Positions 1,066 to 6,139 of a DNA stretch of 38,742 nt are shown here, in pieces. This stretch comes from Sphingobacteriaceae bacterium (GTDB taxonomy: Bacteria > Bacteroidota > Bacteroidia > Sphingobacteriales > Sphingobacteriaceae): contig JAIEMU010000216.1 in assembly GCA_019751895.1 (NCBI GenBank), forward strand, positions 1 to 38,742, in the 5' to 3' direction. The position numbers were made by a program, and so were the translations under genes. How positions within the stretch are numbered: the first letter of the stretch is position 1; every line of letters begins with the position of its first letter. The notes beneath the pieces were generated by a model. That model was not told where the DNA came from and did not search any database. It was given only the letters and a program-made list of their open reading frames with translations.

Positions 1066-3180
1066 TTGGCACGTCGTATAAAAATTGCTTTAGTAGGTAA
1101 TCCAAATACAGGAAAATCTACTTTGTTTAACCTACTTACAGGTTTAAACCAAAAGATTGGCAACTTTCCAGGAATAACAGTAGATAAAAAAATTGGTCAA
1201 TGTAAGTTGGCACAAGATATCCATGCCGAAGTAATTGATTTGCCGGGTACATATAGTTTGTATCCTAAAAGCAAAGATGAAAGTATTGTTTTTCAGGTAT
1301 TGGCAAATTCCGAAGAAGTTAATTACCCCGATTTAGTGGTTTTGGTGGTTGATGCTACCAATTTACGCCGTAATTTGTTGTTGTTTACGCAAGTTGCCGA
1401 TTTAGGTTTGCCTATTATTTTGGCATTAAACATGACCGACATCGCCCAAAAAGAAGGGATTGATTTGGATGTAGATTTGTTGTCGCAGCGCTTAGGAGTG
1501 CAAATTGTATCCATTTCGGCTCGTAACAACTTGGGTTTAGAAGAATTGAAAAGCGCCATCGTGAATAGCAATTCAATTTTAACACAACAAGAATCCGTAG
1601 AGGTAAGTTTATTTGCGCCAAAGGCAATTGCTGCGGTAAAAGAAAAATTGAATTGCAAACAAGATTATGTTGCGCTGCAAATTTTACATCAATACGAAAG
1701 CCTAAATAATTTATCTCCTTCCGACAAACAAGCCGTTAGTGATATTGTTTTGCTTACGCAGTTTGATACCAACGAAATACAAACCAAAGAAACCATTGCC
1801 CGTTACAGGTATTTGAGTGGAGCTTTGTTGGGGGTAACGAAAGATACCAGCGCCAACAAAAAATTTGCTTTAAGCGATAAAATAGATACCATCGTGACCC
1901 ATAAAATTTTTGGTTTTGCGATTTTCTTTTTCATTTTGTTTTTTGTTTTCAACGCTATTTTTACTTGGGCATCTTACCCAATGGAATGGATTGAGAATGC
2001 TTTTTTAGCCATCAGTAATTTTGGACACGAACATTTGCCGGCAGGTGTGATGACCAATTTAGTTTTAGATGGAGTGCTGTCTGGCTTGGGTGGGATTTTT
2101 GTTTTTATCCCTCAAATCGCCATTTTATTTGCATTTATTTCTGTTTTAGAGGATACAGGTTATATGGCTCGAGTGACGTTTATGCTCGATAAAGTGATGC
2201 GCAAGTTTGGTTTGAGTGGAAAATCGGTAGTGCCTATTATTGGCGCTTTTGCTTGTGCAGTGCCTTCTATTATGAGTGCTCGAAACATCGAAAACTGGAA
2301 AGATAAAATCATTACCATCATGGTTACACCTTTAATAAGTTGTTCGGCAAGATTGCCTGTTTACATTTTATTAATTTCGATGGTGGTGCCTAAAACTTTA
2401 TATTTTGGTTTTTTGAGTTTGCAGAGCATCACCTTAATGGCGATGTATTTGATTAGCATTTTGGCAGCTATATTGGTTGCCATGGTTATGAAATTTTTTA
2501 TCAAGGTAAAAGAAAAATCATATTTCATTATGGAATTGCCCGTTTACCGCATGCCAAGGTGGAGCAATGTTTTTTATACGATGTACGAAAAATCTAAAAC
2601 CTTTGTGTTGGAGGCAGGTAAGGTAATTATTGCCATATCAGTAGTGTTGTGGGTGATGGCAACTTACGGACCTACGCAAAAATTTACAGCCATTGAACAG
2701 AAATACGAGCAATTAAAAACAAAAAATCCGCAAGCGAAAATAGAACTAGAGCGTAGCGAGGCAGCCGAAAAGCTAGAAAACTCTTATGCAGGTATTTTGG
2801 GGAAAAGTATTGAGCCTATGATTAAACCTTTGGGTTTTGATTGGAAAATTGGCATAGCCTTAATTACCTCCTTTGCAGCTCGGGAAACTTTTGTAGCCAC
2901 CATGGCAACTATTTACAGCGTAGATGCCGAGGAAGGTGAATCGGAAACCCTGAGAGTGAAAATGAGCAAGGCAATGAACCCTGAAACTGGTTTGCCTGTG
3001 TTTACTTTTGCAACGGCTTTTTCGTTGATGTTGTTTTATGCCTTTGCTATGCAATGTATGAGTACCATTGCCGTGGTATATCGCGAAACCAAAACTTGGA
3101 AATGGCCAATGATTCAATTGGTGTATATGACTGCCTTGGCTTATGCGGCTAGTTTTATAGCTTACCATTGTTTTAAGTAA
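1066..3180 (+). CDS. feoB: Ferrous iron transporter FeoB
   Basis: A 704-residue inner-membrane Fe(II) transporter with a GTPase domain at its N terminus. G1 is GNPNTGKST (11-19), G3 is DLPG (58-61) and G4 is NMTD (122-125). The membrane part contains the two Gate repeats, the first around GKSVVPIIGAFACAVPSI with its conserved Cys, the second around ITSFAARETFVATMATIYS. The length is normal for a Bacteroidota FeoB without a fused FeoA domain. The start is a TTG at 1066, since no ATG lies near the required N terminus and the G1 loop begins ten residues later. It follows feoA by 7 nt. Its last codons lie inside a direct repeat that reappears 1,700 bp downstream. Confidence 0.95.
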   Translation: MARRIKIALVGNPNTGKSTLFNLLTGLNQKIGNFPGITVDKKIGQCKLAQDIHAEVIDLPGTYSLYPKSKDESIVFQVLANSEEVNYPDLVVLVVDATNLRRNLLLFTQVADLGLPIILALNMTDIAQKEGIDLDVDLLSQRLGVQIVSISARNNLGLEELKSAIVNSNSILTQQESVEVSLFAPKAIAAVKEKLNCKQDYVALQILHQYESLNNLSPSDKQAVSDIVLLTQFDTNEIQTKETIARYRYLSGALLGVTKDTSANKKFALSDKIDTIVTHKIFGFAIFFFILFFVFNAIFTWASYPMEWIENAFLAISNFGHEHLPAGVMTNLVLDGVLSGLGGIFVFIPQIAILFAFISVLEDTGYMARVTFMLDKVMRKFGLSGKSVVPIIGAFACAVPSIMSARNIENWKDKIITIMVTPLISCSARLPVYILLISMVVPKTLYFGFLSLQSITLMAMYLISILAAILVAMVMKFFIKVKEKSYFIMELPVYRMPRWSNVFYTMYEKSKTFVLEAGKVIIAISVVLWVMATYGPTQKFTAIEQKYEQLKTKNPQAKIELERSEAAEKLENSYAGILGKSIEPMIKPLGFDWKIGIALITSFAARETFVATMATIYSVDAEEGESETLRVKMSKAMNPETGLPVFTFATAFSLMLFYAFAMQCMSTIAVVYRETKTWKWPMIQLVYMTALAYAASFIAYHCFK

Positions 3181-3211
3181 TTTGAAAAAACCCAAAAAAA
3201 GGGGTTTGTAT
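3167..3211 (+). repeat. Direct repeat, copy 1 (3' end of feoB plus flank)
   Basis: The first 22 bases (3167-3188), covering the last feoB codons and stop, are identical to 4867-4888. The match continues imperfectly to 3211 through an A-tract, a G-run and TTGTAT. In copy 2 that G-run is the left arm of the fabV terminator; here it is no longer followed by the right arm. The two copies bracket the island that carries the lipoprotein gene. Confidence 0.85.
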
Positions 3212-3262
3212 CAGTCTAAAACGGAAAGGAAATTAGTGATTATCAGTTTTTATCCGTGTTCT

Positions 3263-3372
3263 TCAGCGAAATCAGCGTGCTATCTTATCAGCGTGAAACA
3301 AAAGAAAACAAAATCGCCCCTTTGCATATATAAAACAAAGAGGCGGTTTTTTAAAAAAAGGATAGGTTTTTC
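3263..3372. repeat. Duplicated downstream block, copy 1
   Basis: This segment (TCAGCGAAATCAGCGTGCTA onward, then the CGCCCCTTTG hairpin and GGATAGG) matches 3723-3822 closely, including hairpin arms and spacing to the stop codon of the lipoprotein reading frame. It is the 3' flank of the broken paralogue, so gene tail and flank were duplicated together. Confidence 0.8.
3315..3352. terminator. Hairpin terminator of the broken paralogue, possibly also used by feoB
   Basis: CGCCCCTTTG (3315-3324) pairs with CAAAGAGGCG (3336-3345) with one mismatch. It is followed by six T residues on the plus strand, and the minus-strand side is also T-rich. It can work in either direction: for the minus-strand remnant or as a distal terminator for feoAB. 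Confidence 0.65.
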
Positions 3373-3555
3373 TTATTGAGAAATGATTTTAGTTGAAAAA
3401 GCTTTCCATTCGTTATGTGTTTGGTAAGCTCCCACCGAACCCGAAGGTACTTTTATTTGTAAACTAGGGATGCCATAAAAAATATATTCTCCTAAATCAG
3501 GTGGTGTAGTAGCGTTTACGATTATCTCTGTTAAATTACTGCAATTTTCCGCCCT
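3373..3555 (-). pseudogene. 3' remnant of a BspA-like lipoprotein gene (paralogue of 3823-4614)
   Basis: Reading the minus strand from about 3555 to the stop at 3373-3375 gives some 60 codons without a stop. They encode CSNLTEIIVNATTPPDL, then IKVPSGSVGAYQ and a final STKIISQ. The intact neighbour ends with the matching pieces LTLVTINATSPPSL, IKVPADKVSDYQ and SNKIISQ. So this is the last LRR_5 repeat and C terminus of a paralogue whose 5' part is gone. The similarity stops exactly where a perfect palindrome begins (3554). There is no start codon or signal peptide, so it is most likely dead. Confidence 0.85.
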
Positions 3556-3578
3556 TGTTGGTGTTATCCACCAACAAG
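3554..3578. repeat. Perfect palindrome at the breakpoint of the broken gene
   Basis: CTTGTTGGTG, a TTATC loop, then CACCAACAAG: a 10-bp perfect stem. No T-tract follows on either strand, so it is not a standard terminator. It resembles a REP-type palindrome and marks the point where the remnant loses similarity to its paralogue. Confidence 0.65.
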
Positions 3579-3631
3579 TATTTATATCCGTCTGATTTGA
3601 GATTTATATCTTTCTATATCCTATCGTTTAG

Positions 3632-3651
3632 ACCCTTCGTATCCTCAGGGT
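3632..3651. repeat. Short palindromic repeat-like element
   Basis: ACCCT at 3632-3636 pairs with AGGGT at 3647-3651 around TTCGTATCCTC. From memory it resembles the ACCCTTCG...CTCAGGGTGACA palindromes scattered between genes in many Bacteroidota; this cannot be confirmed from one window. Confidence 0.35.
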
Positions 3652-3722
3652 GACAAAAGGGATAAAAATCTGTTTTTATTCGTTTCTTCCGTTCAATCTG
3701 TGTTCCCTCTTATCTGCGTTTC

Positions 3723-3822
3723 TCAGCGTAATCAGCGTGCTATCTTATCAGTGTGAAACAAAAACAAAACCGCCCCTTTGTGTGCTACAAAGAGGCGGTT
3801 TGAAAGAAAGGATAGGCTTTGC
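3723..3822. repeat. Duplicated downstream block, copy 2
   Basis: The partner of 3263-3372, with the same ATCAGCGTGCTATCTTATCA core, hairpin and GGATAGG just before the stop codon of the lipoprotein gene. The two blocks begin 460 nt apart. Confidence 0.8.
3760..3800 (-). terminator. Terminator of the InlB/BspA-like lipoprotein gene
   Basis: AACCGCCCCTTTGT (3768-3781) pairs with ACAAAGAGGCGGTT (3787-3800) with one mismatch in 14. Read on the minus strand, the stem is followed by a T-rich run (TTGTTTT), as expected 22 nt after the stop of the minus-strand gene. Confidence 0.8.
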
Positions 3823-4614
3823 TTATTGAGAAATAATTTTATTTGATAAATTACTCCAGTTGGGAGCTTTTTGGTAATCAGAAACTTTATCAGCAGGAAC
3901 TTTTATTTTAAAATTAGCATCAGCTCCGTCAAAAATTGAACTAGCACTCAAACTAGGTGGCGAAGTAGCGTTTATAGTTACTAATGTTAATTTTGGACAA
4001 AAGCCGAAAGCATGTTTTCCAATATTGGTTACCGAAGCAGGAATCGTAATACTCGTTAAAGCTTCGAATGATAGGAAAGTATTATCTCCTATTTTTTTTA
4101 AACCTTCTGGCAAAGTTACTTTTTTTGTAATCGTATTCATACCGATAAAACCGCTATATGAATCGATTTCTACCACTTGTTTGCCATTTATGATTGCGGG
4201 TACTATCATTTCTTCTTGTAATGAGTCCATATCCGCTATTTTAATCTCCGTAGTACTGATATTTGTTATGTTAAAGGTTATCCATTTGGCATAAAGTGTA
4301 GTATTGGCATTGATGGCTTGGGTGGGATCAAACTTGGTGGTTGTGCCAGCATCAGTGTACCAACCTTGAAAACCACTATCTGTTTTGGTAGGAGTAGGAA
4401 TAGAACTTAGCTTTGCACCTTTAGGGATTGAAAGGGTTGTTGGAATGCCTGTTCCTCCATTAATGTTAAAGCTCACAGTGTACATCTTTGTGGTAGGCGT
4501 AGTAGGGTCTTCTGTTGAGGATTTAGTAGGAATAACGTTGTCGTTTTTGCAACTCGCAAAACCTAATGCAACTAAGAATAATACTACACTCATTAATTTA
4601 GTCATGTTTTTCAT
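3823..4614 (-). CDS. Surface lipoprotein with an InlB-type repeat and a BspA-like leucine-rich repeat
   Basis: A 263-residue predicted lipoprotein. The N terminus has a hydrophobic signal peptide ending in GFASC, with Cys22 as the likely lipidation site, then a Thr/Pro-rich linker (about 23-43). Residues 44-111 form a Listeria-Bacteroides (InlB B-type, Flg_new) repeat: YTVSFNINGGTG, GWYTDAG and TTLYAKW. The rest resembles the BspA-type LRR_5 fold (VTLPEGLKKIGDNTF, ITIPASVTNIGKHAF). Such proteins are usually exposed on the cell surface and bind other proteins or glycans; the ligand is unknown. An ATG at 4605 is an alternative start. The gene stands alone between feoB and fabV, with a broken copy of its 3' end downstream. 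It is probably a variable accessory gene. Confidence 0.8.
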   Translation of the reverse strand: MKNMTKLMSVVLFLVALGFASCKNDNVIPTKSSTEDPTTPTTKMYTVSFNINGGTGIPTTLSIPKGAKLSSIPTPTKTDSGFQGWYTDAGTTTKFDPTQAINANTTLYAKWITFNITNISTTEIKIADMDSLQEEMIVPAIINGKQVVEIDSYSGFIGMNTITKKVTLPEGLKKIGDNTFLSFEALTSITIPASVTNIGKHAFGFCPKLTLVTINATSPPSLSASSIFDGADANFKIKVPADKVSDYQKAPNWSNLSNKIISQ

Positions 4615-4634
4615 GTGGGGTTTTTGTTTTATTA

Positions 4635-4677
4635 TTTTTATAAAGTCGCTAAGGTATAGCTATTTTTTTATAAAGTC
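4635..4677 (-). promoter_or_regulatory. Two 13-bp direct repeats upstream of the lipoprotein gene
   Basis: On the minus strand GACTTTATAAAAA occurs twice (4665-4677 and 4635-4647), 30 bp apart, about three helical turns, within 65 nt of the lipoprotein start. A TACCTTAG sequence between them is one base from the Bacteroidota -7 box TAnnTTTG. This could be the promoter with a regulator site, but the repeats are AT-rich and may be chance or duplication. Confidence 0.35.
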
Positions 4678-4726
4678 CGTGTTTTCTATGTTTTTTTTGT
4701 GTGAAGGATCAATCTACCGACTAGAT

Positions 4727-4865
4727 TCCCCGCTCTTCGACATTTGTAATGTCGAAGGATTATCATTGGGTCTGTGACCCAAAACAAACACAAAACGTTA
4801 TTATTTGAAACGATTTGCAAAACCTACGATTTGGATTCGAGATTACAAATGTCGAACAGCGAGGA
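4727..4865. mobile_element. 139-bp non-coding element with 24-bp terminal inverted repeats (MITE or paired-REP like)
   Basis: The 24 bases at 4727-4750 match the reverse complement of 4842-4865 at 22 positions. The left end itself forms a hairpin, CTTCGACATT-TGT-AATGTCGAAG (4735-4757). A second hairpin, TTGGGTC-TGT-GACCCAA (4766-4782), lies inside. There is no coding capacity. This is the shape of a MITE or of two REP sequences in inverted orientation, of the type moved by IS200-like (Y1/RAYT) transposases elsewhere. The mobiliser is not in this window. Confidence 0.65.
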
Positions 4866-4866
4866 G

Positions 4867-4908
4867 ATTGTTTTAAGTAATTTGAAAATCCAAAAAAAGG
4901 GCTTGTAT
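4867..4908 (+). repeat. Direct repeat, copy 2 (feoB-end sequence)
   Basis: Identical to 3167-3188 over its first 22 bases, then imperfect. It begins one base after the right inverted repeat of the 139-bp element. It contains a second copy of the end of the feoB reading frame and runs into the fabV terminator. Confidence 0.85.
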
Positions 4909-4931
4909 TTTTAAAATACAAGCCCTTTTTT
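4892..4931. terminator. Bidirectional terminator, serving fabV
   Basis: GGGCTTGTATTTT (4899-4911) pairs perfectly with AAAATACAAGCCC (4913-4925), flanked by an A-tract on the left and six T residues on the right, so it can stop transcription from either side. It lies 18 nt after the fabV stop. Before the island arrived it probably served feoB as well. Confidence 0.9.
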
Positions 4932-4948
4932 GTAATGATATCTTTTGC

Positions 4949-6139
4949 TTATTGCAAACCGCTGATGGCTACCATCTCGTTGGTATCTTGGGTATAATCT
5001 ACTTGAGGAAAACCAAAACCAAACAAGCTTGAGAAATCGGATTTATAACCCGCTAAGTCGCCCAATTGACCTAAATTTTCGGTGGTTGATTGCTCCCAAA
5101 GCTCAGCAATTTGTTGTTGCACATCAGCACGCATTTCCCAATCGTCAATTCGTATTCTGCCTTGCTCGTCGGTCTCTATTGCCTTGTTGGTATATAAACG
5201 GTCTTTAAACAAACGTTGAATTTGTTCGATACAGCCTTCGTGAATACCTTTTTCTTTCATGATTTTATACAACAAAGAAATGTAAAGTGGGATTACAGGA
5301 ATGGCAGAACTGGCTTGAGTAACCAAAGCTTTGTTTACCGAAACATAAGCTTTCCCGTTTAGGGCTTTTAGTTTTTCTGTGATTTTAAAAGCGGTAGCTT
5401 CCAAATGATCTTTGGCACTGCCGATGGTACCTTTGCGATACACCGCCTCGGTAAGTGAAGGGCCGATGTAAGAATAAGCTACTGTCATCGCGTTGTCGCT
5501 CAAAACGCCAGCTTTTGTCATTTCATCTATCCACATTTCCCAATCCTCGCCACCCATTACGGCAACGGTATTTTCTATATCCTCGGCAACGGCAGGTTCA
5601 ATACTTACGTTTGAAACCACACCTGTGTGAAAATCTACTGTTTTATTGGTGAAAGTACTGCCAATTGGCTTTAAAGTAGAACGATGCAACACGCCCGTGG
5701 TCGGATGCATTCTTACTGGAGAGGCCAAACTGTAAATAATTAAGTCTATTTTGCCTAAGTCGGCTTTAATCAAGTCGATGGTTTGTTTTTTGATTTCATT
5801 TGAGAAAGCATCACCGTTGATACTTTTGGCATAGATACCTGCTTTGTCGGCTTCAGCTTGAAAAGCAGCACTGTTGTACCAACCTGGAGAGGCGGTTTTG
5901 CCTGCCTGTGGTTCTTTTTCAAAAAACACGCCAATGGTGGCTGCGTTTGAACCGAAAGCACTCGTAATTCTTGATGCCAATCCAAAACCCGTAGAGGCGC
6001 CAATTACCAAAACATTTTTAGGGCCTTCAATATTCCCTTTTGATTTTATAAAATCGATTTGATTTTTTACATTTTGCTCGCAGCCTTTTGGATGTGCTGT
6101 TAAACAAATAAATCCTCGCATTCTTGGTTCTATAATCAT
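4949..6139 (-). CDS. fabV: Trans-2-enoyl-ACP reductase (NADH), FabV
   Basis: A 396-residue enoyl-ACP reductase of the FabV type, which reduces trans-2-enoyl-ACP in the last step of the fatty-acid elongation cycle; relatives include the trans-2-enoyl-CoA reductases TER. The N terminus MIIEPRMRGFICLTAHPKGC is diagnostic. The dinucleotide-binding loop GASTGFG is at 48-54. The catalytic Tyr-X8-Lys pair is Y234 and K243 (YRKGTIGSAK), the spacing specific to FabV. Length matches the family. A -7 box TACATTTG lies 22-29 nt upstream and a strong terminator follows. FabV enzymes are generally poorly inhibited by triclosan. The window also contains a FabK-like gene. Confidence 0.95.
   Translation of the reverse strand: MIIEPRMRGFICLTAHPKGCEQNVKNQIDFIKSKGNIEGPKNVLVIGASTGFGLASRITSAFGSNAATIGVFFEKEPQAGKTASPGWYNSAAFQAEADKAGIYAKSINGDAFSNEIKKQTIDLIKADLGKIDLIIYSLASPVRMHPTTGVLHRSTLKPIGSTFTNKTVDFHTGVVSNVSIEPAVAEDIENTVAVMGGEDWEMWIDEMTKAGVLSDNAMTVAYSYIGPSLTEAVYRKGTIGSAKDHLEATAFKITEKLKALNGKAYVSVNKALVTQASSAIPVIPLYISLLYKIMKEKGIHEGCIEQIQRLFKDRLYTNKAIETDEQGRIRIDDWEMRADVQQQIAELWEQSTTENLGQLGDLAGYKSDFSSLFGFGFPQVDYTQDTNEMVAISGLQ

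What the first reader, a model, noticed from the sequence alone, without database searches (positions are those of the whole stretch)
3167..4908. 1.7-kb island inserted at the end of feoB, flanked by direct repeats of the feoB tail
A 22-bp identical sequence (about 43 bp imperfect), including the feoB stop codon, occurs at 3167 and again at 4867, exactly 1,700 bp apart. Copy 2 continues into the intact bidirectional terminator shared with fabV, while copy 1 keeps only a mutated left arm. The likeliest history is an ancestral feoB-terminator-fabV arrangement split by arrival of the island, with duplication of the junction. All repeats, the remnant gene and the lipoprotein gene lie between the two copies.
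Basis: partly seen in the sequence, partly recalled or inferred. Interest (0 to 1): 0.7.

Follow-up and report, generated by a model that had tools for sequence, protein, structure and literature searches.

The report
Lipoprotein gene pasted beside feoB
A small lipoprotein gene block seems to have been inserted at the very end of an iron-transporter gene in a way that copied the gene's last bases, so the gene was not broken, and several other places in this bacterium's genome show the same build.

Summary
A 42-45 bp direct repeat (first 22 bp identical) holding the feoB stop codon lies at 3167-3211 and 4867-4908. It matches nothing else well in the held genome and is beyond chance. Between the copies lie one Flg_new/LRR_5 lipoprotein gene, the remnant of a second, and dispersed repeats; no transposase or integrase was recognised.

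The case is not isolated. In 55% of this metagenome-type draft genome, similar low-copy direct repeats of 53-167 bp flank extra genes at gldD/MBL, holin-like/MKSKIETL, a DUF4403 gene and an AAA-ATPase gene. The first two sites are empty in 29 of 29 relative loci each. A relative, G005, shows the same at accC around a toxin-like gene; another, G016, shows none in 400 kb.

No relative examined has feoB next to fabV, so the empty feoB-terminator-fabV site is inferred, not seen. How the DNA goes in (patching of a staggered break is my guess) is unproven.

The parts
1066..3180 (+). feoB, intact; target gene whose 3' end is duplicated
   Evidence: FeoB_N, Gate, FeoB_C; relatives mostly align to residues 702-704, so the tail in copy 1 is native
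3167..3211 (+). direct repeat copy 1: last codons and stop of feoB plus left arm of the terminator
3188..3207 (+). short stem-loop AAACCC/GGGTTT in copy 1; no T-run follows
   Evidence: RNAfold -8.8 kcal/mol for 3177-3215
3230..3308 (.). fragment of dispersed repeat family B
   Evidence: matches on C41, C2, C89, C114; second copy at 3710-3768
3312..3350 (-). hairpin, terminator-like sequence after the remnant gene
   Evidence: sequence; twin of 3766-3801 (D6/D9)
3376..3543 (-). remnant of the 3' end of a second lipoprotein gene of the same family
   Evidence: 46% identity to residues 206-263 of the intact one, E 7e-6; D1/D3
3542..3772 (.). dispersed repeat family B
   Evidence: 62 further match rows at E<=1 in this genome to 3170-3830, most of them to this part
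3766..3801 (-). hairpin, terminator-like sequence of the lipoprotein gene
   Evidence: sequence
3823..4614 (-). lipoprotein gene, 263 aa, lipobox-like GFASC (by eye), Flg_new and LRR_5 domains
   Evidence: paralogs on C39, C41, C62, C36, C185
4532..4738 (-). 5' end and upstream region of the lipoprotein gene, 88% like that of the C39 paralog
4729..4866 (.). dispersed palindromic element A; its right end abuts direct-repeat copy 2
   Evidence: inverted repeat I1
4867..4908 (+). direct repeat copy 2 (feoB tail without feoB)
4893..4931 (.). 19-bp perfect inverted repeat, bidirectional terminator-like hairpin between the insertion and fabV
   Evidence: I3; fold -22.8 kcal/mol
4949..6139 (-). fabV (trans-2-enoyl-CoA reductase), convergent neighbour
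   Evidence: PF12241, PF12242, PF07055

Best explanation
[quoted passage not shown] Shown: two diverged copies of a unique 42-45 bp target (the feoB 3' end plus the left arm of a terminator) flank a block with a lipoprotein gene, a remnant of another and dispersed repeats; the same anatomy with other targets and cargo occurs elsewhere in this genome and in one genus relative; two of the sister sites are empty in relatives. Inferred: the block came in as one piece (or grew by tandem duplication afterwards) at a break within the feoB 3' end, and repair copied the target to both sides, so feoB kept its last codons and fabV kept its terminator. My guess for the molecular step is patching of a staggered double-strand break, or a replication template switch, by end joining without any transposase.
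For: Unique repeat, not chance, not dispersed. No transposase or integrase recognised between the copies (ORFs; Pfam run on the lipoprotein only; the other ORFs there have at most 130 aa). Same-style islands in G000: C9 (55 bp, 94.5%; gldD end and MBL-fold gene start; two paralogous lipoprotein-like genes without Pfam match); C4 (167 bp, 99.4%; end of a holin-like gene and start of the next; SLFN_AlbA_2 gene); C60 (53 bp, 90.6%; DUF4403 gene end; VIT1 and DUF2231-like genes); C47 (64 bp, 92%; AAA-ATPase/PDDEXK_9 gene end; ORF6N gene). The holin and DUF2231 matches are below Pfam's cut-off. Empty sites: gldD and MBL 7-133 bp apart in 29 of 29 relative loci (the 30th relative searched, G006, had no match); the two C4 target genes side by side in 29 of 29 loci (a 30th relative, G005, had a match but no locus). 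G005: 114-bp duplication of the accC end around a toxin-like gene (names by eye); accC and tatC 45-106 bp apart in 16 of the 19 genomes where both could be read, G005 among the three exceptions. Low-copy direct against inverted pairs: 10 to 2 in G000, 7 to 1 in G005, 0 to 1 in G016. Duplication lengths vary (45-167 bp) and six targets share no word longer than 10 bp, against a site-specific enzyme.
Against: No genome with an empty feoB-terminator-fabV site was found, so for this locus the target order is inferred from the repeat alone. Empty sites were not tested for C60 and C47. G016 shows no such pair in 400 kb, so the process is not uniform in the genus. Not all 10 G000 pairs are of this kind: C7 is an IS200-like gene between its own repeats, C61 looks like tandem paralogs, C67 is ambiguous, C20 and C45 are unclear. 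G046 has the same toxin-like gene between accC and tatC, and G004 has 555 bp there, without an exact direct repeat of 12 bp or more. A Ku gene was not found in G000 (assembly about 80% complete), which weakens the end-joining guess there. The source is a draft assembly, although diverged copies cannot easily be an assembly artefact.
Confidence: 0.72

Rival explanations
1. Site-specific genomic island: a tyrosine recombinase integrated a small element at an att site in the 3' end of feoB, leaving attL and attR; the integrase was lost later or acts in trans.
For: Direct repeats covering a gene 3' end and terminator are the classic look of such islands (recalled).
Against: No recombinase recognised in the block. 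Sister islands in the same genome use unrelated targets of different length (45-167 bp) with no shared core.
Confidence: 0.08
2. Homologous (Campbell-type) integration of a circular DNA that carried the feoB tail, for example picked up by earlier excision between the repeats in another cell of the species.
For: A single crossover in a shared segment also gives target-cargo-target. The Arabidopsis work on transposed genes proposes such a route for genes with flanking repeats (PMC2869330, passages).
Against: It needs a donor already carrying the same feoB tail beside the cargo; no third copy was found in the held genome. It explains spread within a species, not the first insertion. Repeats of about 45 bp are short for such recombination (recalled).
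Confidence: 0.12
3. Recombination between dispersed repeats or tandem duplication: the feoB tail was copied during a rearrangement that brought fabV next to feoB, and repeats A and B together with the lipoprotein array filled the gap.
For: feoB-fabV adjacency was seen only in this genome and the block is full of dispersed repeats; element A abuts copy 2 exactly. B also lies just outside the left copy at C60.
Against: C9 and C4 have the same duplication with unchanged neighbours. Whole-genome searches with the two ends of the block list no match on C4 or C47 (40 of 93 and of 94 candidates scored).
Confidence: 0.08

Closest known systems
Insertion with long target duplication (Nobusato et al. 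2000, Gene 259:99; restriction-modification genes of Helicobacter pylori 26695/J99)
   Same: Gene inserted with a long, variable (order of 100 bp) direct duplication of the target, not linked to a known mobile element, as described in CGAT (PMC1643837, passages), PMC3031569 (passages) and PMC3874152 (passages). The original paper was not looked up in the library and not read; it is known here only as cited.
   Different: Here Bacteroidota; cargo of lipoprotein, SLFN_AlbA_2, VIT1, ORF6N and toxin-like genes, no restriction-modification gene among the cargo scanned; duplications of 45-167 bp; targets at gene ends or seams with the neighbours left intact.
Genes with flanking repeats in Arabidopsis (PMC2869330, passages)
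   Same: Non-transposon genes with >30-bp flanking repeats; 13 of 18 such had the repeat at the orthologous site of A. lyrata.
   Different: Plant, whole transposed genes; circle-and-recombination model proposed there.
Intron gain by repair of staggered breaks in Daphnia (PMC4202315, passages)
   Same: Insertion with direct repeats of the target attributed to staggered double-strand break repair.
   Different: Repeats of 4 to 12 bp, eukaryote, introns.

Membership tests
insertion with long target duplication | insert flanked by direct repeats derived from host target sequence | tested here: met
   repeats are the feoB 3' end
insertion with long target duplication | the repeat is present once at the unoccupied site in relatives | tested here: inconclusive
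   feoB site: no relative examined has feoB beside fabV. Sister sites C9 and C4: target genes directly adjacent in 29 of 29 relative loci each
insertion with long target duplication | long and variable duplication length, unlike a transposase | tested here: met
   45, 53, 55, 64 and 167 bp at five sites
insertion with long target duplication | no mobile-element enzyme in the insert | tested here: met
   ORFs of the block and Pfam of its one gene (smaller ORFs not scanned); sister cargo
insertion with long target duplication | cargo is a restriction-modification gene (usual in the H. pylori reports) | tested here: not met
   cargo is a Flg_new/LRR_5 lipoprotein; I take this association as usual, not as defining
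integrase-mediated genomic island | integrase gene, or a shared att core between insertions | tested here: not met
composite or simple IS transposon | IS ends or transposase, short fixed target duplication | tested here: not met
   duplication 42-45 bp; IS ends were not searched for as such

The most novel reading that the evidence does not exclude
Members of this Bacteroidota genus carry a recurrent, transposase-free route by which small cargo genes (lipoproteins, toxin-like genes, Schlafen-AlbA, VIT1, ORF6N) settle exactly at the seams of conserved genes, with a 40-170 bp duplication that re-makes both neighbours, possibly by Ku-dependent patching of staggered breaks (Ku was found in 18 of 21 genus genomes, though not in G000).
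Probability: 0.25. Interest if true: 0.7.

Novelty: new variant of a known kind. Interest (0 to 1): 0.5.

Why it matters
How small cargo genes such as toxin-antitoxin or surface-lipoprotein genes enter and stay in chromosomes without a recognisable mobile element is poorly explained; a toxin-antitoxin review calls the fixing of acquired systems not yet understood (PMC2654758, Conclusions section read). Here several insertions of different apparent age (copies 99% to 89% identical) can be read in one genome, with clean empty sites in relatives for two of them, so the rate, target preference and repair pathway become testable in a group other than Helicobacter. The duplication would explain why insertions into tightly packed genes are tolerated: both neighbouring genes are regenerated.

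Tried and rejected
Looked for an empty feoB site: fabV in 99 and then 145 genus genomes, feoB in 99; none seen adjacent. SprT-like neighbour of feoB: no match in G000 (the tool warns that an empty answer shows little, and the assembly is incomplete). Element A as the cause of insertion: rejected as a general cause, because A lies at one junction of C5 and of C9 but the whole-genome search lists no match on C4, C60 or C47 (40 of 94 candidates scored). Shared recognition core of targets: none. Rfam: no match at gathering score in the window. Tandem Repeats Finder: none. Rows dropped before the count of 10: a laxer scan gave 144 direct pairs, 30 with low copy number; the 85% identity and copy filters left 10. 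Literature (listings, open-access library only): 'long target site duplication' with Bacteroidetes gave 0 papers, Pedobacter with 'target duplication' gave 0; the listings (19 of 19; 12 of 26; 12 of 31) showed no title on Bacteroidota. (repeats, staggered ends, paired nicks) gave nothing on bacteria that I used; PMC4202315 came from the listing. PMC3077401 held the term only in its reference list.
Full report
What is there. The window is contig C5 of a 2.32-Mb, 217-contig draft genome, G000, about 80% complete, probably a metagenome assembly. feoA and feoB (1066-3180) are followed by a 42-45 bp direct repeat, a block of about 1.65 kb, the second repeat copy, a strong bidirectional hairpin (4893-4931) and the convergent gene fabV (4949-6139). 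The repeat copies are identical over 22 bp and 89% identical over the gapped length. In the held genome they match each other at E 1e-8 and the next match has E 0.14. None of 100 first-order shuffles of the window gave a direct repeat of 22 bp or more.

What the block holds. Read on the minus strand it carries an intact lipoprotein gene with a Flg_new and an LRR_5 domain, its terminator-like hairpin, a dispersed repeat (B), the 3' remnant of a second gene of the same family with its own hairpin, and more of repeat B. At the feoB-distal end lies a palindromic dispersed element (A, 4729-4866). Family B: 62 further match rows at E<=1 to 3170-3830, most within 3542-3772. Family A: 29 rows outside C5, on 14 contigs, fall in element A, some being both strands of one palindromic place. 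Paralogs of the lipoprotein lie on C39, C41, C62, C36 and C185 (E about 1e-27 or lower). Those of C39 and C41 have B repeats on both sides, and C39 shares 88% identity over the 5' end and promoter region. So the content is a local, amplified gene-and-repeat family; the flanking direct repeat is unique.

Relatives. In 99 genus genomes (own included), feoB was found in 98 and fabV in 90. By eye from those tables, 88 relatives have both and none shows them adjacent (nearest on one contig about 25 kb, G049; pairs on different draft contigs cannot be fully judged). Within 1.5 kb of fabV no feoB was found in 31 relative loci. After feoB, 21 of 29 relatives have a gene with a QYMP-type start that I recall as SprT-like, for which no match was found in G000. 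The best fabV identity listed among 145 genus genomes is 79%.

The same build elsewhere in this genome. A scan of 1,276,375 bases of G000 (79 contigs) for low-copy direct pairs (300-8,000 bp apart, at least 85% identity) gave 10 pairs, against 2 inverted. Five, by my reading, share the anatomy of the finding. C5 is the finding itself. On C9 the end of gldD and start of an MBL-fold gene are duplicated (55 bp) around two paralogous lipoprotein-like genes and an A element. On C4 167 bp (99.4%) spanning the end of a holin-like gene and the start of the next are duplicated around an SLFN_AlbA_2 gene. On C60 the end of a DUF4403 gene is duplicated (53 bp) around VIT1 and DUF2231-like genes. On C47 the end of an AAA-ATPase/PDDEXK_9 gene is duplicated (64 bp) around an ORF6N gene. 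C67 is possible. C7 (IS200-like transposase gene between repeats) and C61 (tandem paralogs) are not of this kind, and C20 (not looked at further) and C45 are unclear.

Empty sites. For C9, gldD and the MBL gene lie 7-133 bp apart in 29 of 29 relative loci. For C4, the two target genes lie side by side in 29 of 29. In both, the occupied G000 site has complete neighbours: the left gene ends in copy 1 and the right gene starts in copy 2. It succeeds for these sister sites, was not run for C60 and C47, and could not be met for feoB.

Controls and spread. The same scan gave 0 pairs in 400 kb of G016 and 7 in 400 kb of G005 (six of the seven inspected; gene names by eye). In G005 the accC end (114 bp) is duplicated around a toxin-like gene and the gcvH start (38 bp) around three ORFs; two short pairs (33 and 47 bp) around small ORFs are unclear, one pair is paralogous genes and one a palindromic repeat. 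accC and tatC are 45-106 bp apart in 16 of the 19 loci, of 30, where both could be read; G005, G004 and G046 have something between. No exact direct repeat of 12 bp or more was found in the G004 and G046 loci, although G046 holds the same toxin-like gene there; so not every occupied site has, or keeps, the mark.

How it most likely works. Targets differ in sequence and length and share no core, and no transposase or integrase was recognised in the cargo. This speaks against a site-specific or transposase route and for capture of a DNA piece at a break with copying of the target on both sides. Ku was found in 18 of 21 genus genomes but not in G000, so end joining is plausible for the genus and unproven here. 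Selection would keep only insertions whose duplication re-makes the hit gene, which would explain the bias to gene ends. This step is inference.

Known kind. The pattern matches 'insertion with long target duplication', described for restriction-modification genes of Helicobacter pylori (Nobusato et al. 2000; seen only as cited in PMC1643837, PMC3031569 and PMC3874152, passages). The phylum and the cargo differ here. Two searches for the pattern in Bacteroidota or Pedobacter returned no paper (open-access library only).

Noticed in passing
window 3188-3207: The two substitutions that separate copy 1 from copy 2 (T->C and C->T) give copy 1 a 6-bp stem AAACCC/GGGTTT (-8.8 kcal/mol for the stretch), as if feoB had re-made a small hairpin after losing the right arm of its terminator; no T-run follows.
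   Followed up: partly
window 4729-4866; C168, C172, C66, C9, C104, C1, C42 of G000: Element A is a family of linked palindromes (TTCGACATTTGTAATGTCGAA, GGGTCTGTGACCC, GGTTTACAAAACC types), in full or half copies; no Rfam match at gathering score (window only).
   Followed up: partly
G000 C1:32528-34656 (L157): An HTH_3 gene and a HepT-like gene with a neighbour that looks like a nucleotidyltransferase (by eye) sit between direct repeats that contain halves of element A: toxin-antitoxin-like modules bracketed by repeats.
   Followed up: no
G000 C7:15937-16855 (L208): An IS200-like (Y1_Tnp) transposase gene lies between 172-bp direct repeats rich in small palindromes, like a REP-associated transposase (the comparison is recalled).
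   Followed up: no
genus g1, 21 genomes searched: A Ku gene is found in 18 of 21 genus genomes; not in G000, G006 and G014.
   Followed up: partly
G016:C3:227766-228656 (L401): The tatC match of G016 shows one TAA inside the match.
   Followed up: no
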